Part shown: one piece after another, positions 1,956 to 56,338 of the stretch | Layout of the letters: each line of letters begins with the position of its first letter | Position numbering within the stretch: the first letter of the stretch is position 1 | Origin: Planctomicrobium piriforme | GTDB taxonomy: Bacteria > Planctomycetota > Planctomycetia > Pirellulales > UBA1268 | Direction: 5' to 3' | NCBI GenBank assembly: GCA_945869735.1 | Contig: CAMBPQ010000009.1 | Location: 1-64,000, forward strand | DNA length: 64,000 bases | Notes under the pieces: generated by a model | Databases searched by the model: none | The model's input: the letters and a program-made list of their open reading frames with translations, nothing else | Told to the model about the DNA's origin: nothing | Program-made: the position numbers and the translations under genes

Positions 1956-2280
1956 GACTGAGTTCTCCGTCGGATATGCCGAGCCGACGGATGGAATCGG
2001 TCATGCCGGTCGTCCGGCGGTAGGGTCGTTCCGCACGTGCCGGTCACACAACCTAGGCAAGGTGTGCGGCCATGATGCCGTGGCCCTCGGCGTCCGCCGC
2101 AGGATGGCCATGCATCCGCACACTGCCCAGACCCCCCGGGGCGCCGGGCTTCAGCGTGGCCGGCCCCCTGTGCCGCAGTTTCCGGCTGACGCCGCACTCG
2201 CGCCCGCGGATGAGCTCCTCTTCGAGGAGATCGCGGACGTGGTCGTCATCGACCGAGTTCCGAGGAAGAGTTTCAGGTCT
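1956..2280. other. Intergenic stretch without a convincing gene
   Basis: This is the upstream region of the BBP7 gene and should carry its promoter. On the minus strand a 90-codon open frame (2053-2325) includes the acidic segment DHVRDLLEEELIRGRE, but its start lies inside the neighbouring repeat, no ribosome-binding site is seen, and the rest is low in structure. It could be a gene remnant; no function can be assigned. Confidence 0.4.
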
Positions 2281-2353
2281 AGAGCGCATTCGACTTACGT
2301 GGAACGCCGGCTTCGGGGGCGGCAAAAGTCTCGTCGCTCTATCGCCGCGGCGG
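2281..2353 (-). repeat. Dispersed 159-bp repeat, copy A (right half only)
   Basis: The stretch begins with AGAGCGCATTCGACTTACGT and continues through the shared core GGCGGCAAAAGTCTCGTCG to the CGCCGCGG block. It is the right half of the repeat family described at 19562-19720, in reverse orientation. The inner end abuts the truncated 3' end of a decayed IS91-type transposase. The base before AGAGC is T, giving the TA seen at several other copy ends. Confidence 0.75.
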
Positions 2354-3230
2354 CCCGGTCGTCATGCGACTGCACGAGTTCTCCCCAGTCGGTGGGCGGG
2401 CCTCGCGCAGGTGAAAGCGGAGGTGGCTCGGGCGGTTCGCCGAGGTGCGTGAGGATCTTCCGGATCGGCACCGGCTTGGGTGTAACGCGATCAGCCGGAT
2501 GTCGCCGCCACACCCCGGGCACGCACGCGGAAACTCCTCCCCCACCCGGGCCATGAGCTTGGCCCAGGCTTTTGCGCGAGGTGTCGTGCGAGGGACAGGC
2601 ACCTGTTCCTGCGAAACACGAGCCAGTCCAAACCCCTTTGGCGAGTGCCATCACGGCCCGCCTCAGCTTGTGGTTGGGTGCAAACACCCCTAGCTTGTTT
2701 CAAGGCGGCAGGCGATGCCGGTGCTTGCGCGGCGGCGGCACGAGATCCGCGAGCCTGTCGAGAAACTCAAACGGCGAGAGCTCGACAACGCCGTTGGCCC
2801 CCGGCCGTGTGGACTTTCGCGTGCGGCCCGGGCCGACCCAGCTGGCGGCTTTGTGCCGTGGCAGCGCGGACGCGCCTGATGCGGCCGCTCGCGTCACCAG
2901 TCACAGAGAGTCGCTCCCGTGCGAAAGGCGGCCGGGCACAATACCGCAGCAGATGTTCCAAGCTCTGAAAATAGCTGGGCACGTCGCGGTCGATCAGCGC
3001 GATGCGGACGCTCGTGTCCACCGAAAACCCGCTGTTCTCCCAGGCGAGCATGTCGGCGGCCGCAGCGGCGTCGAGCAGGTGAGTGAGCCTAAACCAGCGG
3101 ATCACACGGCGGCACACCCGCTCGGTGAGCGTCGCCAGGTCGGCGTGCGTGATCGGCGAGATGGCCGCGGAGTTCCTCCTCGACGTGGCCCGGCACGGGC
3201 CGCTCGGCGCGGTCGCGCTACTCGAGCCAG
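2354..3230 (-). pseudogene. Decayed IS91-family transposase, middle and C-terminal parts
   Basis: Read on the minus strand, successive frames give an IS91 (IS801/IS1294)-type transposase in order. It starts with RRVIRWFRLTHLLDAAAAAD and the ARPPFARERLSV region, then crosses a frameshift to PFEFLDRLADLVPPPRKHRH. After further shifts come APNHKLRRAVMALA, then RVGEEFPRACPGCGGDIRLI, then IRKILTHLGEPPEPPPLSP and PARGPPTDWGELVQSHDD. At least three frame changes are needed, so it cannot make a functional protein. The N-terminal catalytic region with the HUH and tyrosine motifs is missing. The 3' end is cut off by repeat copy A. IS91 elements move by rolling-circle transposition and lack terminal inverted repeats, so element ends cannot be placed here. 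Confidence 0.7.
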
Positions 3231-3285
3231 CTCTCGAGGCTCTCGGAGACACTTCTTGTGGAGCGGTGTCTTCTCGGGGCGGGGG

Positions 3286-3541
3286 CAGTGTATGGGGGAG
3301 GAGTTTCCGCTCGAGTGCCCGAACTATGGCGGCGACATCCGGCTGATCGCCTTCATCACCGAAGCAGGACCCATTCAGAAGATTCTCACACACCTCGGCG
3401 AGCCGCTCGTACCGCCGCCACTCTCGCCGGCCCGTGGCCCGCCCACCGATTGCGGCGAGCTTGGGCAGATGCATGATGAGCGCGGCGTCTTTCAGGCGAC
3501 GGAGAGACGAGCTGCCCGCGATCGACATCCACAGCCTCTGA
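3286..3541 (+). pseudogene. Second IS91-family transposase C-terminal fragment, opposite orientation
   Basis: The plus strand encodes GEEFPLECPNYGGDIRLIAF, then IQKILTHLGEPLVPPPLSPA and ARGPPTDCGELGQMHDERGV, the same C-terminal block as the preceding minus-strand remnant. A frameshift near 3505 leads to the expected family ending DELPAIDIHSL and a TGA at 3539-3541. One Cys of the CxxCGGD zinc-ribbon-like motif is replaced (CPNYGGD). Only about 85 codons of the transposase remain. The two fragments point toward opposite strands and meet at roughly 3230-3286. Confidence 0.7.
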
Positions 3542-3751
3542 GCCGTGCCGGACGCGAGGTCACGACGAAGCGCCCAGGCGGCCGGACTCGGAGAGACTCC
3601 GCGCTGACGCCAGAAAAATGCCACTCAAGGCGGGAAGATGGCCGCTCCGGAAAACGCTTTCTGGGATCTCCGAGACGGGAACAACCGGCTCCACGCGGCT
3701 CACAAGTCGTTCAGCAGTCCGGCCATGCCGGCGGAAGTGCCATTGGCCGGC

Positions 3752-4906
3752 CTATCCTTCGGGCCGGAGGGCCTGCGCCGCCACGGCCTTGACGATCGCC
3801 TCGGCAATCCGCGGCAGTGGCACGACCTGCTCGGCAACGTTGAGTTCGATCGCCGCCCGCGGCATGCCAAACACCACCGACGTCGCCTCGTCCTGTGCGA
3901 TCGTCCGCCCACCCGCCCTCCGGATGGCCTGCATGCCCAGCGCCCCGTCGCTCCCCATGCCGGTAAGCAGCGCGGCCACGACCCGCGACCCTGCGGCCTC
4001 GGCCGCCGAGCGAAAGAGAACATCGACCGCCGGACGACAGTGGTGCACGGGGGGCGTTTCGAGCAGCCGGGCCCGGTAGGCCCCGCCCTGCCAGACCACG
4101 GCCAGATGGCGGTCGCCCGGCGCGATCACGCACCGCCCACGGCGGAGTTCCATGCCCTCCTCGGCCTCGCACACTTCGTAACCACACATCGCGTCGAGCC
4201 GCTGGGCTACGACCCGCGAAAAATAAGCCGAGATGTGCTGGACGACCGCGACCGGCGGCAGATCGGCAGGCAGCCGCGGCAGGATCGTCCGCAGGGCCTC
4301 GACGCCCCCCGTCGAGGAACCGAGCACCACGAGCTGCCGGGGATCGACCAACCCCACCGGCGGTAGCGCCACCACAGCCGCGTGCTGCGCAGGCGTGGCC
4401 GACGGCTCAGCTCCGCGGGCCAGGCTCCGGTCAGGCGCCGTCTCGAGCGGTAGTTCGGCCGGTTGCATGACTGGTTGCCGGCGGCGGCTAAACCGCGTGG
4501 AGGCCGCGGCGGCCTTCACGTGATAGGCGAGCCGCGCCCCGAGGCCGCCGATCGACATCGTGCCGTCGGGTTTGGCGAGCACGTCGACGGCGCCGGCGTC
4601 GATCGCGTCGAGGGCCGTCTGCGACCCGGCCTGCGCGAGCGAGCTCACGATCACGACCGGCAACGGATGGTGCTCCATCAGGATCCGCAGGAACGTGAGG
4701 CCATCCATCCGAGGCATCTCGATATCGAGCGTGAGCACGTCGGGATCGAACTTGAGGATCTTCTCCCGCGCGACGTAGGGATCACAGGCCGAGCCGACGA
4801 CCTCGATCTCCGGGTCGAGGGCGAGTGCATCGGTGATCGCCTTTCGGACCAACGCCGAATCGTCGACGACGAGGACGCGGATTCGGGCTGGGTATGAATG
4901 GTTCAT
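3752..4906 (-). CDS. cheB: Chemotaxis response regulator protein-glutamate methylesterase CheB
   Basis: CheB removes methyl groups from chemoreceptor glutamates and deamidates glutamines, resetting receptor sensitivity once phosphorylated by CheA. It is 384 residues long. An N-terminal receiver domain (about 8-125) has acidic D15/D16, phospho-acceptor D61 in LTLDIEMPRMDG and K112 in LAKPDG. A linker follows, and then the methylesterase domain (about 190-380) with S198 in GSSTGG, H224 in VVQHIS and D320 in TGMGSDGA as the expected catalytic triad. It is the last gene of the chemosensory operon, 28 bp after cheR, and is cytoplasmic. All key residues are present, so it should be functional. Confidence 0.95.
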   Translation of the reverse strand: MNHSYPARIRVLVVDDSALVRKAITDALALDPEIEVVGSACDPYVAREKILKFDPDVLTLDIEMPRMDGLTFLRILMEHHPLPVVIVSSLAQAGSQTALDAIDAGAVDVLAKPDGTMSIGGLGARLAYHVKAAAASTRFSRRRQPVMQPAELPLETAPDRSLARGAEPSATPAQHAAVVALPPVGLVDPRQLVVLGSSTGGVEALRTILPRLPADLPPVAVVQHISAYFSRVVAQRLDAMCGYEVCEAEEGMELRRGRCVIAPGDRHLAVVWQGGAYRARLLETPPVHHCRPAVDVLFRSAAEAAGSRVVAALLTGMGSDGALGMQAIRRAGGRTIAQDEATSVVFGMPRAAIELNVAEQVVPLPRIAEAIVKAVAAQALRPEG

Positions 4907-11794: not shown

Positions 11795-12174
11795 GGGGAC
11801 AAGGGAGCCTTCCGAGCCGGCAAACTCAACGCAAACACTCCAGTGTAGTTCGCGTTTTGGGACGGGGCGCCGGCCCTCCAAACCCACCAGCCCGCACGTT
11901 CGGCCGAAAACGACCCCCTCCCAAAACTTTCCAGAGGCTCTGGTGCCACTCCATCCACGGCACGGCGGATGCCCACCGCTCGTCGTCATGCCGCTTGGCA
12001 TGCTTTTTAATCCGCTTTTCGCGTGGCTCGAAACTCGCCCAGGGTCCGCGGCTACAACTAAAGCCACCGTCAGTGGCCCCATCTCCACCCACGGGGGAGT
12101 GTCCCTGCAGTCCCGTCGAAAGCCCGACTCACCAAGAACCGGGATGGTCCATCAAGAAAGGCGAGGAAGTGGCG
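11795..12174. other. Divergent intergenic region between chemoreceptor and SMR genes
   Basis: This stretch of about 380 bp separates the minus-strand chemosensory operon from the plus-strand SMR gene and must hold both promoters. No gene is supported. A short GC hairpin with an ACGG loop lies near 12098-12110, but no complete riboswitch fold was recognised. GAGGAAG at 12163-12169 is the ribosome-binding site of the SMR gene. Confidence 0.5.
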
Positions 12175-12504
12175 ATGCACTGGTTCTATCTTGCGATCGC
12201 GATCGTGGCGGAGGTGGCGGCGACGAGCTGCCTCAAGGCCTCGGCCGGCTTCACAAAACTCGGCCCGAGCCTGCTGGTGCTCGCCGGCTACGGCGTCGCG
12301 TTCTTCTTTCTATCGCTGACGCTCAAGGACATCCCCGTCGGCGTCGGCTACGCGATCTGGTCGGGCGTGGGCGTCACGCTGATCGCCCTCATTGGCTGGC
12401 TCGCATTCGGTGAGAAGCTCGATCCGCCCGCGATCCTCGGCATGTCGCTGATCGTGGCCGGCGTCGTTGTGCTCAACCTGTTTTCGAAGACGACCGCCCA
12501 TTAA
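12175..12504 (+). CDS. Small multidrug resistance (SMR/EmrE-type) efflux protein
   Basis: This is a 109-residue integral membrane protein with four hydrophobic helices, the usual SMR size. The essential membrane glutamate is present at E13 ([19 protein letters not shown]), and the family motif [19 protein letters not shown] forms the third helix. SMR proteins work as dimers that exchange protons for cationic drugs, guanidinium or related compounds; which substrate applies here cannot be told. The start at 12175 has GAGGAAG at a good distance. The TAA stop (12502-12504) overlaps the first bases of a dispersed repeat copy, so the gene's 3' end may have been set by that insertion. Confidence 0.93.
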
Positions 12505-12590
12505 AGCGCGTCCGACTGAGGTGGATCGCCGGCTCGGGGGCGGCAAAATTCTCGTCGCCAAGGCGAGGATACGCCCGACGCGAACGTCCG
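12503..12590 (-). repeat. Dispersed 159-bp repeat, copy B (partial)
   Basis: The copy starts AAAGCGCGTCCGACTGAGGT right at the SMR stop codon, has the core GGCGGCAAAATTCTCGTCGCC, and shares GAGGATACGCCCGA with copy D before similarity fades near 12590. It is in reverse orientation relative to copy C and lacks the other end. TA precedes the terminal AAGC. Confidence 0.7.
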
Positions 12591-12661
12591 GCTCTCAGGG
12601 CACGGGCAGCCCAGAATCGTCGCCACGTTCTCTGGTTGCGGCCGAGAGGCCGCGTTATGAG

Positions 12662-14552: not shown

Positions 14553-16523
14553 ATGCCCAAGATCGCCCCGGCCGGCGCAGCATCACGGCCAACGTTTCCG
14601 CTCAACGAGACGATCGCCGTAGGGGCGATCCTAGCGCTCGTGATCTGGGCCGTGCTCGCGTGGTCGGGCGTCGGCGGACGACCATTAGTGCTCGGCCCAC
14701 TCTCGCTTGGCCCACTCGACCTCGGCCGGTTCTTTTCAGGCCGCGGCCTCACGATCGCCGACGTGCCGCTGATCGCGATGCTGCTCCTCGGCGGCGTGCC
14801 GCTCGTCTGGGATCTGCTCACGAAACTCGTCGCGGGCACGTTCGGCTCCGACCTGCTCGCTGGGATCTCAATCATCACGAGCGTGCTGCTCGGCGAATAC
14901 CTGGCCGGGGTGCTCGTCGTGCTCATGCTCTCAGGCGGCGCGGCGCTCGAGGCCCGGGCTGTGAGCCGGGCCGGCGACGTGCTCAACGCGTTGGCCCGCC
15001 GAATGCCCCTGCTCGCTCACAGGAAAACGGTCGCGGGAATCACCGAGGTCGCCCTCGGTGACGTCGTCGTCGGCGACGTGATTGTGGTCCTGCCACACGA
15101 GATCTGCCCGGTCGACGGCATGGTCGTGACGGGCCGCGGGTCAATGGACGAGAGTTACCTCACCGGCGAGCCCTACCGGATGGCCAAGGCGCCGGGATCG
15201 GCCGTGCTCTCGGGCGCCATCAACGGCGAGGCAGCGCTCGAGATTCGCACCGAGCGGGTGGTGGGCGACAGCCGCTACGCGAAGATCATGGAGGTGCTGC
15301 GGACGAGCGAGGAACGGCGGCCGCGGCTCCGGCGAATGGCCGACGCCCTCGGAGCCTTCTACACGCCGCTGGCCATCGCAATCGCCGCGGCGGCCTGGTA
15401 CTTCAGCGGCTCAGCCACCCGCTTCCTGGCCGTGCTCGTCGTGGCCACGCCCTGCCCGCTGTTGATCGCGATTCCGGTGGCGATCATCGGCGCAGTGTCG
15501 CTGGCTGCTAAGCGGGGGATCGTGATCCGCGACCCGGCGATCCTCGAACGGCTCGACACCTGCCGCATCGCCATCTTCGACAAGACCGGCACGCTGACCT
15601 ATGGCACACCGCATCTCACCGAGGTGCTGACGGTCGCACACCTTCCTGAGACTGACGCCCTCGCCCTCGCCGCGAGTCTGGAGGCGTACTCGAAGCATCC
15701 GCTTGCCGCGGCCGTCACGGAGGCCGCCGCGGAACGGGGCCTGCAACTCCTGGAGGTGGCGGCGGTCGCCGAGAAGCCAGGGCAGGGGCTCACGGGCCGC
15801 GTCAAGCGGCAAGGCGGCATCGATGCCCCTCACGACGTGGCGATCACCAGCCGGCAGAAACTTGCGGTGGTCGATCCGCTGGGCGTCGCCCACCTGCCAC
15901 CGGCTGCCGGTGGCCTCGAGTGCGTGCTGGTGGTCGATGGCACGACCGCAGCACTTTTTCGATTCCGCGACTCACCCCGAGCCGACGGCCGGTCATTCGT
16001 CAGCCACCTGGGCCCGTCGCACCGCTTCGACCGCGTGATGCTCGTCTCCGGCGACCGCGAGAGCGAGGTCAAGTGGCTCGCTGATACGGTCGGCATTGAA
16101 GAGGTACATGCCGGCATTCAGCCCGAGGGCAAGCTGCGACTCGTCGAAGCTGCTGTTCGGGAGGCGCCAGTCGTCTTCGTCGGCGACGGGATCAACGACG
16201 CGCCGGCGCTCGCCGCGGCGACGGTGGGCATCGCGATGGGCACGGCCAGCGATGTGACCAGCGAGGCGGCGGGCGCGGTCATCATGGATTCATCGCTGGA
16301 GCGGGTCGACGAACTCTTTCACATCGGCCGGCGGCTGCGGTCGATCGCCCTGCAAAGCGCGGTCGGGGGCATGGCTGCGAGCCTGATCGGAATGGGGTTC
16401 GCGGCGGCCGGACTCCTACCACCGGCGGCAGGCGCGCTGTTGCAGGAGGCGATCGACGTGGTGGCGGTCCTCAATGCCCTGCGGGTATCGTGGAATCCAG
16501 GGTCACTTTCCGACTACGACTGA
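14553..16523 (+). CDS. P1B-type heavy-metal-translocating ATPase with a TPC membrane motif
   Basis: This 656-residue P-type ATPase pumps a transition metal across the inner membrane. It has the actuator motif TGEPY, the phosphorylation loop [10 protein letters not shown] (D343), the P1B-type HP motif in SKHPLAAAV, and [20 protein letters not shown] in the hinge. The metal-site helix reads [16 protein letters not shown], that is TPC (residues 299-301) rather than the CPC of copper or zinc pumps. There is no N-terminal HMA or CxxC metal-binding domain. The TPC class has been less studied, so metal choice is uncertain. GAGGG precedes the ATG; the frame opens only 12 bp after the miaE stop, suggesting cotranscription. 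Confidence 0.92.
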
Positions 16524-19561: not shown

Positions 19562-19720
19562 AGAGCACATCCGCTTGTGGTGTAGCGGCGAGATGGCACC
19601 TTGGTGGAGTAGGCAAGGGGATCGGCGAACGCTCGAGGAGCGCCTGACCCGCCGCGGCGATAGAGCGACGAGACTTTTGCCGCCCCCGAGCCGGCGTTCC
19701 ACGTACGTTGGATCCGCTCT
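19562..19720 (+). repeat. Dispersed 159-bp repeat, copy C (full length)
   Basis: This is the reference full-length copy. The left end is AGAGCACATCCGCTTGTGGT and continues GCGGCGAGATGGCACC; the middle is GGATCGGCGAACGCTCGAGG; the right half has GCGACGAGACTTTTGCCG and ends TCCACGTACGTTGGATCCGC plus TCT. The ends form an imperfect inverted repeat (AGAGC-CATC...GTGGA). It fills the gap between two convergent genes, the desaturase and nupC; its last bases plus the next A give the TAG stop of nupC. No open frame of note is present. Other copies: A 2281, B 12503, D 22971, E 34332, F 36875, G 56252. Confidence 0.85.
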
Positions 19721-20951
19721 AGGGCATGATCACGCCGGCGATGGCGGCCGAGAGCGCGCTTGAGAGCGTGCTGATGACGAGCATCTTCACGCCGAGCTGG
19801 GCAAGGTCCGCCCGCCGCTCTGGGACGAGGGCCCCGATGCCACCGAGCTGGATCCCGATACTCGAGATGTTGGCGAAGCTGCACATCGCGATCGTGGCGA
19901 TGGAAAACGCCTTCGGCGTGAGCGTGTCCTTCATCTTCCCCAAGTCGAAGTAGGCGATCAGCTCGTTGAGCACCGTCCGCGTGCCGAGCAGCCCGCCGAT
20001 CACCTCGCAATCCTGTGTGGGCACGCCGAGGAGCCAGGCAAACGGCGCGAAGACCAGCGCGAGGATTCGCTGGAGCGAGAGCTCCGGCCGGCCGACGAGG
20101 CCACCAAGCCAACCGAGCGCCAGATTGGCCAGCGCCACCAGCGCGATGAACGAGATCAGGATGGCACCGACGTTCGCCGCCAGCATCATTCCCTCTCGAG
20201 TACCGCGGGCGGCGGCATCGAGGACGTTGGAGTCGATCCGCTCGTTTGCCACTTGAAGCGTGCCGAGCGTCTCGGGGTCGCCGGTCTCCGGAATGAACAT
20301 CTTTGTGAGGTAGATCGTGGCCGGAAAACTCATCAAGATTGCGGTCAGCAGGTCGCGGATGTCACAGCCGGCCGCGGCATAGGCCCCGAGGATGCCTCCC
20401 GAGACCAGCCCCATGCCGCTGACCATCACCACGGCAAGTTCCGACCGCGTGAGCCGCGGGAGGTAGGGGCGAATCACGAGCGGGGCTTCGGTCTGGCCAA
20501 GAAAGATCGAGGCGGCGGCGTTGAGCGTCTCGGCGCCGCTCGAACCCAGAATCTTGGCCGTCACCCAGGCGAATGCCCGCACCACCACCTGCATGATGCC
20601 GAGGTGGTAGAGCACGGCAAAGAGCGCCGCCACGAACACGATCGTGGGAAGCACACGAAAGGCGAACACGAAGCCCATTGGCCCGGCGGGGTCGGCGAGT
20701 TTGTCACCGAACACGAACCGGCTGCCGGCATCGGAGCAGGCGAGCACCGTATCCACCCACTTCGCTGCAGCCTCCAGCACCCCCTGGCCCGTCGTGGACC
20801 GCAGCAGGACGAAGCCGAAGACGCACTGCATCGCCAGGCCGCCGAGCACCATCCGCGGCGAGATCTTTCGGCGGTTTTCGGAGAACAGCCAGGCGGCGCC
20901 GAGAATCGCCGCCACGCCCAGCAGCCCACGGAACCGGTCGAGATCGCCCAT
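19719..20951 (-). CDS. nupC: Concentrative nucleoside transporter (NupC/CNT family)
   Basis: This is an inner-membrane nucleoside:cation symporter of about 410 residues with multiple hydrophobic segments. The CNT signature is present: IFLGQTEAPLVIRPYL, then MVSGMGLVSGGILGAYAAAG and later AFSIATIAMCSFANISSIGI. ATG 20951 fits the GAGG ribosome-binding site (spacing 7) better than the ATG two codons earlier at 20957. It leads a run of nucleoside-salvage genes on the same or opposite strand (phosphorylase, uracil phosphoribosyltransferase, cytidine deaminase), which supports a role in nucleoside uptake. The stop codon lies in the end of repeat copy C. Confidence 0.93.
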   Translation of the reverse strand: MGDLDRFRGLLGVAAILGAAWLFSENRRKISPRMVLGGLAMQCVFGFVLLRSTTGQGVLEAAAKWVDTVLACSDAGSRFVFGDKLADPAGPMGFVFAFRVLPTIVFVAALFAVLYHLGIMQVVVRAFAWVTAKILGSSGAETLNAAASIFLGQTEAPLVIRPYLPRLTRSELAVVMVSGMGLVSGGILGAYAAAGCDIRDLLTAILMSFPATIYLTKMFIPETGDPETLGTLQVANERIDSNVLDAAARGTREGMMLAANVGAILISFIALVALANLALGWLGGLVGRPELSLQRILALVFAPFAWLLGVPTQDCEVIGGLLGTRTVLNELIAYFDLGKMKDTLTPKAFSIATIAMCSFANISSIGIQLGGIGALVPERRADLAQLGVKMLVISTLSSALSAAIAGVIMP

Positions 20952-20978
20952 CGACATACCTCGTGATAGAAAAAAGGG

Positions 20979-22970: not shown

Positions 22971-23128
22971 TGAGCCGCATTCGACTTACGTGGAACGCCA
23001 ACTCGGGAGCGGCAAAAGTCTCGTCGGCGGGGGGAGGATACGCCCGAGGCTCCTCGAGCGTTCGCCGACCCCCTTGCCTCCCTCGTCGAAGGTGCCATCT
23101 TGCCACTCTAGAACAAAGGCAAATGAAC
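22971..23128 (-). repeat. Dispersed 159-bp repeat, copy D (near full length)
   Basis: Read left to right it is the reverse of copy C: TGAGCCGCATTCGACTTACG, AGCGGCAAAAGTCTCGTCGG, GCTCCTCGAGCGTTCGCCGA, CCCCCTTGCCTCCC, and GGTGCCATCTTGCCACTC near the far end. The terminal AGATGCGCTCT is degraded to AAATGAACAAA. It occupies most of the 329-bp gap between the divergent upp and cdd genes, so any promoter for these must lie inside or beside it. Confidence 0.8.
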
Positions 23129-23273
23129 AAACGCAGATGCGCTTTCGCGTTCGCAGCATGATAAGGATTGATCTAGCCGTGTCGACCGTACGGGGCGCAC
23201 GAAGCCGGATACACTTCCTTCTCGGCCGGTGGCAGCCGAACACCATCTCGGAATCCCGACGTGAGACCCCGCC

Positions 23274-32522: not shown

Positions 32523-32562
32523 CCTCCCGTCAGGAAGCCCCAAGCGCGAGCGCGGGGAATAC
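32523..32562 (+). repeat. REP-like palindromic repeat, copy 1
   Basis: CCTCCCGTCAGGAAGCCCCA is followed by AGCGCGAGCGCGGGGAATAC. The middle forms a hairpin (CCCC...GCGC-GA-GCGC...GGGG). A second copy lies 210 bp downstream at 32733-32772. Both sit in the 305-bp gap between rsmG and the next gene, which has no supported gene of its own. Confidence 0.65.
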
Positions 32563-32732: not shown

Positions 32733-32772
32733 GCCTCCGTCAAAAAGCCCCAACCGCAAGCGCGGGGAATAC
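32733..32772 (+). repeat. REP-like palindromic repeat, copy 2
   Basis: CCTCCGTCAAAAAGCCCCAA is followed by CCGCAAGCGCGGGGAATACT. It matches copy 1 over about 38 bases with few differences, including the CTCC-GTCA leader and the GGGGAATAC tail. It ends about 20 bp before the stop of the minus-strand hypothetical gene. Confidence 0.65.
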
Positions 32773-34325: not shown

Positions 34326-34331
34326 TTGCTC

Positions 34332-34482
34332 AATCACATCTCGGATAGCTGTCGCGGCGACTTGGCAAACTGGAAAAGGGAGGCAAGGTGGTCGGCGAAC
34401 GCTCAAGAAGCGTCGGGCCACCGCGGCGCGACGAGACTTTTGCCGCCCTCAAGCCGGCGATCCACGTACTTTGGATGCGCTC
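34332..34482 (+). repeat. Dispersed 159-bp repeat, copy E (full length, diverged)
   Basis: AATCACATCTCGGATAGCTG aligns base for base with the left end of copy C over 57 positions, and GGTCGGCGAACGCTCAAGAA, GCGACGAGACTTTTGCCGCC and GATCCACGTACTTTGGATGC follow in order. It is about 8 bp shorter than C in the middle. It takes up a third of the 415-bp gap between the apbE and TolC-family genes; the remaining part (34483-34740) shows no feature. Confidence 0.78.
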
Positions 34483-34740
34483 CGATCTTTCAAGCTTGCC
34501 CAGCCTGCCGTACGAGCGGCGGACTCTGCTGATTATTCCAAGTTTGCGGGCAGGACCGTCGATACCTCCGATGCTGCCGCTGCGCCTCGGTGCATGCGGT
34601 GCGGGCACGGAGTCGGGGGGCGACGTGCCGGGACGTCAGCGCTGGCATCAGCGGTGACATCCCCTCGGGCGCAGCGGCGGCATTTTAGATCACTCGATAC
34701 CGACCACGAGACCGCCGGCACCCCGCCGGCGTCCCCTACC

Positions 34741-36921
34741 GTGCTGCGACTTACCCGACAACTCTGGGTGGCTCTCACGAGCCTTACGCTCGTCGCCAGT
34801 GGGTGTGCGCCCCGGCAACCGTTCTACTTCTTCGAGGATGGCGACCTCTCGCACTACGTCGGCGCGATCCAGAAACTCGAATACCCCGACGGCGACCAGG
34901 CTCCGCTCGACGAAGCGGCCGGGACCGTCGAACCGCTCACGCTTTCGAACCCCAGCTTTGACAACATCTGGGAAGTCTCGCTCGAGGAGGCGGTCCGCAC
35001 GTCGCTCGAAAACGGCAAGGTGCTCCGTAACCTCGGCGGCCGATTCGGCAGCTTCGGCGGTCCGCGACCCCAGACCGGTGAGCCGCCCGTGTCGCTGCTC
35101 ACGAACCCGCAGGCCACGCCGAGCATTTACGACCCGGCGATCGTCGAGACCGATCCCTTCCGCGGTGTCGAGAGCGCGCTGTCTCTGTTCGATGCCCAAC
35201 TCTCCAGCTCGCTCACCTGGGAGCGGCAGAACCGCCCACAGAATATCGGTGGCATCGGCACCGTGATTTTCCAGCAGAAGTTCCTCGGTGACACCGGCAA
35301 CTTGACGACCGGGATCCAGAAGCGGACCGCGACGGGTGCCACGTTCGGCGTCGCCAACACGACGCTTTACGACAACAACAACTCACCAATCCGCCAGGAC
35401 GGGGTGCCGTCGACCTGGACGACCAACTACGACTTCACGTTTAGCCAGCCGCTCCTCCAGGGTGCCGGCGTGACCTACAATCGGATCGCCGGCCCCGACG
35501 CCTTTGACAACATTTACGGCCGGCCGAACTTCCGCGGCGTGCTCCTGGCGCGGATCAACGCCGACATCTCGCTGGCCGACTTCGAGGCGGGGGTCCGCAA
35601 CCTCGTCAGCGACACGGAGCAGTCATACTGGGAGCTCTACTTCGCCTACCGCAACCTCGAGGCTCGCAAGGCTGGCCGCGACAGTTCGCTGGAGGCCTGG
35701 CGGAAGGTGCATGCCCTGTATGTCGAGCAGTCCCGGGGCGGCGAGGCCGACAAGGAGGCCCAGGCCCGCGAGCAGTATTTCTTCTTCCGGAGTGAGGTCG
35801 AGCAGGCCCTCACCGACGTCTACCGCTGCGAGAACCGGCTGCGGTACATGATGGGTATCTCCGCCAGTGATGGCCGGCTGATCCGTCCGTCAGACGAGCC
35901 GACTACGGCCCGGATCTCGTTCGACTGGCAGCAGTCGCTCGTCGAGGCCCTGTCGCGGTCGGCCGAACTCCGTAAGCAGAAATGGATCATCAAACAGCGG
36001 GAGCTCGAGCTCACCGCCGCCAAGAACCTGATCATGCCCCGGCTCGATATGGTTGGCCGCTGGCGGTTCCTCGGCATGGGCGAGGAGCTGCTCAATCAGA
36101 ACTATTCCGACTACGACGCCAACGGTAGCGATCCGCTCGCTGGCACCGACGCCTACTCGACGCTCTTGAGCGGCCGGTTCCAGGAGTGGCAGGCGGGGGC
36201 ACAGTTCCTCATGCCGCTCGGCTTCCGCCGTGAACTCGCGACCGTGCGTCACCACCAACTCCAGCTGGCCCGCGAACGGGCCCGGCTCCAGGACGAGGAA
36301 CTCGAGGCCTCCCACGCGCTGGTCGAGGCGGTGCGGAACGTCGACACGAACTTCGCACTGTCCCAGACCAACTTCAATCGTCGGGTGGCCGCCGAGCGGC
36401 AGGTCGAGGCGGTGCAGGCGGCCTACGACGCCAACACCGTCACGCTCGACCAACTCCTCGACGCCCAACGGCGGCGGGCCGAGGCGGAGAGCGCCTACTA
36501 CCGCTCAGTCGTCGACTACAACCGCTCGATCTCACAGTTGCATTACCGCAAGGGATCCTTGCTCGAATACAACGGCGTATTCCTCGCCGAGGGCCCATGG
36601 CCGGGCAAGGCCTATTTCGACGCCCACCGCCGGGCCCGCCAGCGAGACGCCAGCCTGTATCTCGACTACGGCCACTCGCGGCCCGGTGTCTTCAGCCGCG
36701 GTTCGATCTCACAGAACTTCGAGGAACTCGGTGCCGCCGCCCCCGCCACCCAACTCCCGCCCCGCGACCCTGCGACGCGACCGGAAACCCTGCCGGCACA
36801 ACCGCTCCCAACGGCCCCCGGCACCAAGCCCGAGCCAACGGCACCCGGCCTGCTGCCCCCGCCTCCGCAGGCCTCAAGCGCATTCCCCTTGATGAGAGCG
36901 GCGAGATCGTATCTTGGATGA
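34741..36921 (+). CDS. TolC-family outer membrane efflux protein (lipoprotein-type signal)
   Basis: TolC-family proteins form trimeric outer-membrane channels for efflux or type I secretion. From a GTG at 34741 the protein has 726 residues, beginning with a signal peptide and lipobox (LTSLTLVASGC). The two long helical repeats are seen in ISLADFEAGVRNLVSDTEQS, YWELYFAYRNLEARKAG and in ARERARLQDEELEASHALVE, QTNFNRRVAAERQVEAVQAA. DANTVTLDQLLDAQRRRAEA is typical of the family end. It is longer than usual because of an inserted beta-rich segment near residues 90-200 and a Pro-rich tail. The last 15 or so codons and the stop lie in repeat copy F. The start is uncertain. Confidence 0.87.
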   Translation: MLRLTRQLWVALTSLTLVASGCAPRQPFYFFEDGDLSHYVGAIQKLEYPDGDQAPLDEAAGTVEPLTLSNPSFDNIWEVSLEEAVRTSLENGKVLRNLGGRFGSFGGPRPQTGEPPVSLLTNPQATPSIYDPAIVETDPFRGVESALSLFDAQLSSSLTWERQNRPQNIGGIGTVIFQQKFLGDTGNLTTGIQKRTATGATFGVANTTLYDNNNSPIRQDGVPSTWTTNYDFTFSQPLLQGAGVTYNRIAGPDAFDNIYGRPNFRGVLLARINADISLADFEAGVRNLVSDTEQSYWELYFAYRNLEARKAGRDSSLEAWRKVHALYVEQSRGGEADKEAQAREQYFFFRSEVEQALTDVYRCENRLRYMMGISASDGRLIRPSDEPTTARISFDWQQSLVEALSRSAELRKQKWIIKQRELELTAAKNLIMPRLDMVGRWRFLGMGEELLNQNYSDYDANGSDPLAGTDAYSTLLSGRFQEWQAGAQFLMPLGFRRELATVRHHQLQLARERARLQDEELEASHALVEAVRNVDTNFALSQTNFNRRVAAERQVEAVQAAYDANTVTLDQLLDAQRRRAEAESAYYRSVVDYNRSISQLHYRKGSLLEYNGVFLAEGPWPGKAYFDAHRRARQRDASLYLDYGHSRPGVFSRGSISQNFEELGAAAPATQLPPRDPATRPETLPAQPLPTAPGTKPEPTAPGLLPPPPQASSAFPLMRAARSYLG

Positions 36922-37033
36922 GGGAGGCAAGGGGGTCGGCGAACGCTCGAGGAGCGGCTAAGCCGCCGCGGCGATAGAGCGACGAGACTTTTGCCGCCCC
37001 TGAGCCGGCGATCCACGTACGTTGGAGCGCTCT
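36875..37033 (+). repeat. Dispersed 159-bp repeat, copy F (full length), overlapping a coding end
   Basis: It begins CAAGCGCATTCCCCTTGATG inside the TolC-family gene, shares AGCGGCGAGAT, GGGAGGCAAGGGGGTCGGCG, AACGCTCGAGGAGCGGCT, GCGATAGAGCGACGAGACTT and GATCCACGTACGTTGGAGCG with copy C, and ends at CTCT 37033. It provides the final codons and TGA of the TolC-family gene and reaches to within 18 bp of the stop of the convergent inositol-phosphate synthase gene. Confidence 0.83.
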
Positions 37034-37050
37034 CAGTGGCTGCACTCGGC

Positions 37051-41982: not shown

Positions 41983-45512
<3,530 letters not shown>

Positions 45513-56020: not shown

Positions 56021-56251
56021 GAATCACGCCAAGCCTGAGCGGAGGGGGAGCGCACCCGGGGAGCTATCCCACACCGGGGCCGCCCGTCGCAATCCCGATG
56101 GCGGCCCGCTGCGGCGTGCGGTCCGCGGCCAGACAGCCCAGTCTGCGCAGGCTTCGTTCAATTGCTCGCCGGGGCCGGCCACGACACGCGCCTGCGGACC
56201 ACCCATCGCACGACGAGAGCGCGGCCGCAGGCCAAAGGAAACCAGTGGCTT
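56021..56251. other. Intergenic stretch upstream of the TylF-like gene
   Basis: About 230 bp of GC-rich sequence with no supported gene. Together with repeat copy G it makes a gap of about 318 bp. It should contain the promoter of the four-gene glycan unit; no motif is recognised. Confidence 0.4.
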
Positions 56252-56338
56252 AGAGCGCATCTGCCTTTGGTGGAGCGGCGAGATGGCACCGTCGAGGTGG
56301 GAGGCTCGGGGGTCGGCGAACGCTCGCGGACCCGCTGA
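56252..56338 (+). repeat. Dispersed 159-bp repeat, copy G (left half only)
   Basis: AGAGCGCATCTGCCTTTGGT, GGAGCGGCGAGATGGCACCG, then GGTCGGCGAACGCTCGCGGA. It matches the left half of copy C and stops at the 3' end of the small secreted protein gene. The base before AGAGC is T (TA). Confidence 0.75.

What the first reader, a model, noticed from the sequence alone, without database searches (positions are those of the whole stretch)
19562..19720. Dispersed ~159-bp intergenic repeat with imperfect terminal inverted repeats, seven copies in 64 kb
Copies align by eye at 2281-2353, 12503-12590, 19562-19720, 22971-23128, 34332-34482, 36875-37033 and 56252-56338, in both orientations. Four are near full length (151-159 bp) and three are halves. 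The ends share AGAGCGCAT followed by GTGGA about 10 bases on, in inverted form. Interior blocks (GTCGGCGAACGCTCGAGGAG and CGACGAGACTTTTGCCGCC) are well kept. No coding frame explains them. The base next to AGAGC gives TA at four ends (2280, 12502, 19721, 56251), as expected for TA-target elements such as IS630/Tc1-derived MITEs. I do not know a described family for it.
Basis: partly seen in the sequence, partly recalled or inferred. Interest (0 to 1): 0.78.

Follow-up and report, generated by a model that had tools for sequence, protein, structure and literature searches.

The report
IS630-driven miniature transposon in freshwater planctomycetes
The repeat is real: a ~160-base hairpin-shaped piece of parasitic DNA, present in roughly 300 copies in this planctomycete genome and almost certainly moved by the enzyme of a known transposon family (IS630); it is unusual mainly because its middle is better preserved than the ends that the enzyme should recognise.

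Summary
Observation and interpretation both hold. All seven copies are recovered independently. They belong to a genome-wide family: 46 copies in an unselected 460 kb, about 317 per 3.17-Mb genome, so the window is not special. The unit is a ~160-bp imperfect palindrome, TA-GAGCGCATC…GATGCGCTC-TA, whose consensus folds at -89 kcal/mol (z -4.2). Fourteen near-identical copies in a sister species all have TA at both ends, mostly within CTAG, IS630's preferred target. Full-length 1,017-bp IS630-type elements in the same bacterial family carry matching ends, and a wrecked copy sits beside a repeat in this genome. A syntenic relative lacks four of the window's copies. It is therefore a MITE, undescribed in the papers I could search, of the same kind as pneumococcal RUP. 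Less ordinary: copies avoid divergent promoters, 12 of 46 supply a neighbour's TAG/TAA stop codon, and copies are mosaic. A ~62-nt inner stem (the core) keeps 85-97% identity across species while shoulder and hairpin tip turn over; a search by the ends alone found 12 elements, all 12 with this core. What the core does is unknown.

The parts
2280..2357 (-). half copy (model 82-156, one TIR), fused at the hairpin tip to another dispersed repeat (2353-3760)
   Evidence: neighbour repeat
12502..12581 (-). half copy (model 78-156); its terminal TAA is the stop codon of the SMR-family gene 12169-12504; absent from the syntenic site in G009
19562..19721 (+). full copy between convergent genes; its right-hand TA+G is the TAG stop of the nucleoside-transporter gene 19719-20957(-)
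   Evidence: orthologous site lacks it in relatives
22971..23146 (-). full copy with a short insertion near its 5' end; clean absence in G009
34330..34484 (+). full copy 8 bp after the stop of an ApbE-family gene; joined flanks align to G009 over 82 bp without a gap
36875..37034 (+). full copy; absent in G009, where the upstream gene has TGA in place of this genome's in-frame TCA (36874), so the gene now reads into the element to 36921
56250..56338 (+). half copy (model 1-82), broken at the hairpin tip

Best explanation
[quoted passage not shown] Inferred mechanism: an IS630/Tc1-type transposase, supplied in trans by ~1-kb relatives, binds the ~30-bp imperfect ends (TAGAGCGCATC...), cuts the element out and pastes it into a TA, preferably in CTAG, duplicating the TA. 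Because the first base after the TA is G, an insertion into the TA of a TAG or TAA stop codon recreates a TAG stop, so insertions at gene ends do little harm; insertions in genes and divergent promoter regions are lost by selection. Shown here: the unit, its ends, TA/CTAG flanks, matching IS630 ends, presence/absence between species, recent amplification in sister genomes, depletion from promoters and genes. Inferred: the act of transposition and the identity of the active transposase. The conserved inner stem is not explained by this mechanism alone.
For: 46 copies in 460 kb, none inside a predicted gene apart from partial overlap of one gene end. Fourteen near-identical copies in G014, all with TA at both ends, 10 CTAG and 4 CTAA/TTAG; a second burst in G025. 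Five complete IS630-type elements (994-1,017 bp; HTH_Tnp_IS630 in ORF1 and DDE_3 in ORF2) begin and end with the same sequence: each of the 10 IS ends matches a MITE end at 17-23 of 30 positions, against 18 of 10,604 control 30-mers reaching 17 (controls include the true ends). In G014 the left MITE end resembles the right IS end and vice versa. A degenerate IS copy directly abuts a MITE copy in the own genome. G009, syntenic for >40 kb, lacks the copies at 12503, 22971, 34332 and 36875. Consensus fold -89 kcal/mol, z -4.2. IS630-family ISY100 needs only ~24-30 bp of each end and duplicates TA (PMC2170065); that paper's reference list gives Tenzen and Ohtsubo 1991 on preference for TA in CTAG.
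Against: No intact IS630 element was found in the own genome (only fragments), though MAGs often lose IS. The TA duplication is inferred from flanks and one gapless joined site, not from strain pairs. The 30-bp end match between IS and MITE is good but not perfect (best 23/30). Transposition was not observed.
Confidence: 0.9

Rival explanations
1. The repeat is primarily a host-useful structured element (RNA 3'-end stem, terminator, or protein-binding hairpin) that once arrived by transposition and is now kept by selection; the inner stem is the functional part.
For: Core mismatch rate 3.4% against 9.8% in the TIRs and 7.4% in the shoulder within one genome (Fisher p 1e-7 and 7e-5). Core 85-97% identical to the reference in 15 other species while shoulder falls to 33-58% in most, and one gene used as a yardstick is only 69-85% identical within the genus. 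The tip is replaced by unrelated sequences that mostly still fold as hairpins. Copies prefer convergent 3' ends (21 seen, 9.8 expected). One copy is shared at an orthologous place by two species.
Against: Orientation relative to tandem neighbours looks random (12 same, 9 opposite, counted), so a strand-specific RNA role is unlikely. Four of the window's copies are missing from a syntenic relative. The shared copy is no better conserved than its flanks. Compensatory changes in the inner stem are almost absent because it hardly varies.
Confidence: 0.25
2. It is a REP/BIME-type repeat spread by a RAYT (Y1 tyrosine) transposase.
For: Palindromic, intergenic, hundreds of copies; a true REP-like hairpin repeat (CTTGGGGCTTCCTGACGG) is grafted into some copies.
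Against: No Y1_Tnp protein in the own genome, while the control genomes ring; REPs are 20-40 bp with GTAG/CGTC tags and no TA duplication (PMC3733652); TIRs match IS630.
Confidence: 0.02
3. A structured non-coding RNA family or riboswitch present in many copies.
For: Strong fold of the consensus and conserved inner stem.
Against: No Rfam match in the window; both orientations relative to genes; ends behave as transposon ends; copies differ between close species.
Confidence: 0.04

Closest known systems
RUP (repeat unit of pneumococcus), mobilised by IS630-Spn1
   Same: Short non-coding intergenic unit, about 100 or more copies, TA target, ends matching an IS630-family element (PMC2229807).
   Different: RUP is 107 bp with no internal motif reported and 108 copies in S. 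pneumoniae; here 160 bp, about 300 copies, a conserved inner stem, exchangeable shoulder and tip, and a different bacterial phylum.
Correia elements / NEMIS of Neisseria
   Same: 100-160-bp palindromic MITE with TA at the termini, long stem-loop, internal motif, and modular length variants (PMC2229807).
   Different: Different sequence and host. Correia's internal motif is an IHF site; here it is an unrelated ~62-nt stem of unknown role. The matching autonomous element is identified here.
IS630/Tc1 family insertion sequences (ISY100, IS630)
   Same: TA target duplicated on insertion, CTAG preference reported for IS630, ~24-30-bp imperfect ends, DDE transposase (PMC2170065).
   Different: The repeat carries no transposase gene; only its ends resemble the IS.

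Membership tests
MITE | Short (<~300 bp), non-coding, high copy number | tested here: met
   ~160 bp; 46 copies in 460 kb, ~317 per genome; no gene predicted within copies
MITE | Terminal inverted repeats | tested here: met
   TAGAGCGCATC... at both ends; helix of 23 pairs between ends, 76% of cells paired over 43 diverse copies against 33-47% overall for slid versions of the whole structure
MITE of IS630/Tc1 type | Flanked by TA, preferably CTAG | tested here: met
   14/14 recent copies TA at both ends; 20/30 CTAG
MITE of IS630/Tc1 type | TA is a duplicated target (single TA at the empty site) | tested here: inconclusive
   Flanks joined with one TA align to G009 over 82 bp without a gap for the 34332 copy, but the site has diverged and the dinucleotide there is not TA
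MITE of IS630/Tc1 type | Ends match an autonomous IS630-family element | tested here: met
   10/10 ends of five 994-1,017-bp IS elements match MITE ends at 17-23 of 30; Pfam HTH_Tnp_IS630 and DDE_3
MITE of IS630/Tc1 type | Mobile: presence/absence between close genomes | tested here: met
   Four window copies absent from syntenic G009
MITE of IS630/Tc1 type | Trans-mobilisation by the transposase | not testable with these tools
   needs an in vitro or E. coli transposition assay
REP/BIME with RAYT | RAYT (Y1_Tnp) gene in the genome | tested here: not met
   0 matches to PF01797 in the own genome; control genomes positive
Rfam RNA family | Match above the gathering score | tested here: not met
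   no match in the whole window

The most novel reading that the evidence does not exclude
The element is a two-part mobile unit: IS630-type ends plus a separately selected inner hairpin stem (GGCGAGGGGGTCGGCGAACGCTCGAGGAGC...GCGACGAGACTTTTGCCGCCCCCGAGCC), with exchangeable shoulder and tip. The stem does something essential, either helping the element copy itself in a way not known for IS630 elements or binding a host factor or acting at transcript ends, which would explain why every element found by its ends alone carries it.
Probability: 0.3. Interest if true: 0.65.

Novelty: new member of a known kind. Interest (0 to 1): 0.42.

Why it matters
Planctomycete genomes have few described small mobile repeats. 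This one makes up roughly 1.5% of the genome and seems to have shaped gene ends, including replacing stop codons and adding a C-terminal tail. With both the MITE and its likely helper IS known, mobility can be tested directly. The inner stem, conserved beyond anything the known IS630 mechanism needs, gives a concrete question: what besides the transposase keeps a MITE's interior intact?

Tried and rejected
Rfam scan: nothing. RAYT/Y1 transposase as mover: none in the genome. Other elements with the same ends but another interior: none; all 37 close end pairs in 1.15 Mb overlap the same model, and a pattern search by ends alone in 72 genomes of the family found 12 elements, 0 in the reversed control, all with the core. 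Insertion inside genes of G014 as a source of clean empty sites: none of 14 interrupts a frame. Covariation as proof of RNA structure: too little variation in the core; only the end helix varies, and shuffles reach or exceed several of its measures (one search used a structure string shifted by one column and is superseded). Pattern search for the ~1-kb IS by its ends: gap too long for the tool. Stop-codon enrichment: significant against all non-coding TA (p 2e-5) or an adjusted CTAG baseline (p 4e-4) but not against a generous CTAG baseline (p 0.17), so target preference alone may explain it.

Full report
What was checked. The seven copies are real. A blind repeat search returns them as the strongest short dispersed family in the window. 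A profile built from ten copies, nine of them outside the window, finds the same seven at E-values from 1e-11 to 1e-45, and no Rfam family matches anything in the window. The own genome (3.17 Mb, 128 contigs) gave 280 first-look candidates with the best 40 all below 2e-34. In 460,665 bases taken without regard to the repeat's position on most contigs, a refined profile finds 46 copies, which scales to about 317 copies and 48 kb. The window's density (7 in 64 kb) is not different from the rest (p 0.83).

Anatomy. The consensus runs TA-GAGCGCATCTGCCTTTGGTGGAGCGGC (end and sub-end), a shoulder, the 5' arm of an inner stem (GGCAAGGGGGTCGGCGAACGCTCGAGGAGC), a variable tip, the 3' arm (GCGACGAGACTTTTGCCGCCCCCGAGCC), and the mirrored end GGCGATCCACGTAAGTCGGATGCGCTC-TA. 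The whole folds as one long hairpin: -89 kcal/mol against -70.7 for shuffles, z -4.2; the complementary strand gives -75.7, z -3.4. Over 43 diverse copies, 86% of structure cells pair, against 36-47% when partners are slid.

Target. Fourteen near-identical copies in a sister genome, G014, each end in TA on both sides; ten sites are CTAG and four CTAA/TTAG. Among all copies with TA at both ends, 20 of 30 are CTAG. This is what IS630-type elements do: ISY100 inserts almost only into TA and duplicates it, and IS630 prefers TA in CTAG (PMC2170065 and its reference to Tenzen and Ohtsubo 1991). The duplication itself is inferred, not shown by a strain pair.

The likely helper. DDE_3 transposases occur in 9 of 18 related genomes searched. 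Five complete elements of 994-1,017 bp have the repeat's end at both of their ends. Each of the ten ends matches a MITE end at 17-23 of 30 positions; only 18 of 10,604 control 30-mers from the same loci do so, and those controls include the true ends. The G014 element has HTH_Tnp_IS630 in one frame and DDE_3 in the next. The own genome has only fragments; one, on contig C26, lies directly against a MITE copy.

Mobility. Contig C78 of G009 is syntenic with the window for more than 40 kb at roughly 75-89% identity and lacks the copies at 12503, 22971, 34332 and 36875. For the 34332 copy the window flanks joined with one TA align to G009 over 82 bp without a gap. At 19562 several relatives lack the element. 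One copy elsewhere is shared by G000 and G009 at the same place, so some are old.

Where copies sit. Of 44 copies with both neighbours known, 21 lie between convergent genes (9.8 expected from intergenic length), 21 in tandem gaps (25.1) and 2 in divergent gaps (9.1); chi-square p 7e-5. In 12 of the 46 copies the neighbouring gene's TAG or TAA stop is formed by the element's terminal TA. Since the element's next base is G, insertion in a stop codon's TA regenerates TAG. The excess over chance depends on the baseline chosen. The 36875 copy follows an in-frame TCA where G009 has TGA, so that gene now ends inside the element (and the sequence).

Mosaic structure and the core. Some copies have the shoulder replaced by a module containing a separate REP-like repeat (CTTGGGGCTTCCTGACGG). 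Tips fall into several unrelated sequences that mostly still form hairpins, and in G025 the tip is reduced to a few bases. Half copies break at these same boundaries. The inner stem behaves differently: within this genome its mismatch rate is 3.4%, against 9.8% in the ends and 7.4% in the shoulder, and against 15 other species it keeps 85-97% identity where the shoulder mostly falls to 33-58%. Copies in that comparison were found by similarity, which could flatter the core. An independent search by the ends only, in 72 genomes of the bacterial family, found 12 elements and none in the reversed control; all 12 carry both core arms. IS630-type transposition needs only the ends (PMC2170065), so the core calls for another reason: a founder effect with gene conversion, a role in mobility, or a host role. 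I cannot decide among these.

Distribution. Twenty of 21 same-genus relatives and many of the same family have it, and none of 23 genomes from other families of the order. In 298 genomes of the class, only family members matched, apart from one 38-base match in another family (G208) that on inspection looks like a degenerate relative.

Verdict. A new MITE family of IS630 type in a family of (apparently aquatic) planctomycetes. The kind is known; the member is not described in the papers I could search. The unexplained part is the conserved core.

Noticed in passing
window 32527-32562 and 32737-32772: A separate REP-like hairpin repeat (CCGTCAGGAAGCCCCAAGCGCGAGCGCGGGGAATAC); its CTTGGGGCTTCCTGACGG part has 35 copies in 460 kb and is grafted into the shoulder of some MITE copies. 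No RAYT gene was found in the genome to account for it.
   Followed up: partly
window 2351-3760: A long imperfect inverted repeat (arms of 118 and 61 bp around ~750 bp); pieces recur on both strands in G009 and G017, so it is another dispersed family. The 406-aa ORF in it has no Pfam match.
   Followed up: partly
window 36874-36921: In-frame TCA where the relative G009 has the stop TGA; the OEP-family gene now takes its last ~15 codons and stop from the MITE.
   Followed up: partly
window 12582-12615: The half copy at 12503 is fused to part of yet another repeat (GAACGTCCGG...GGGCACGGGCAGCC) that has several matches in G009 and resembles the sequence at the 19562-equivalent site there.
   Followed up: no
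window 43366-43601: 113-bp tandem duplication, 96% identical.
   Followed up: no
L213 (G208:C49:15500-17300), around record position 16339: A degenerate relative of the MITE, including the 5' core arm, in a genome of another family of the class; the family may be older or wider than the close relatives suggest.
   Followed up: partly
L087 1012-2028: The IS630-type transposase is split over two overlapping frames (HTH ORF and DDE_3 ORF), which suggests a programmed frameshift.
   Followed up: no
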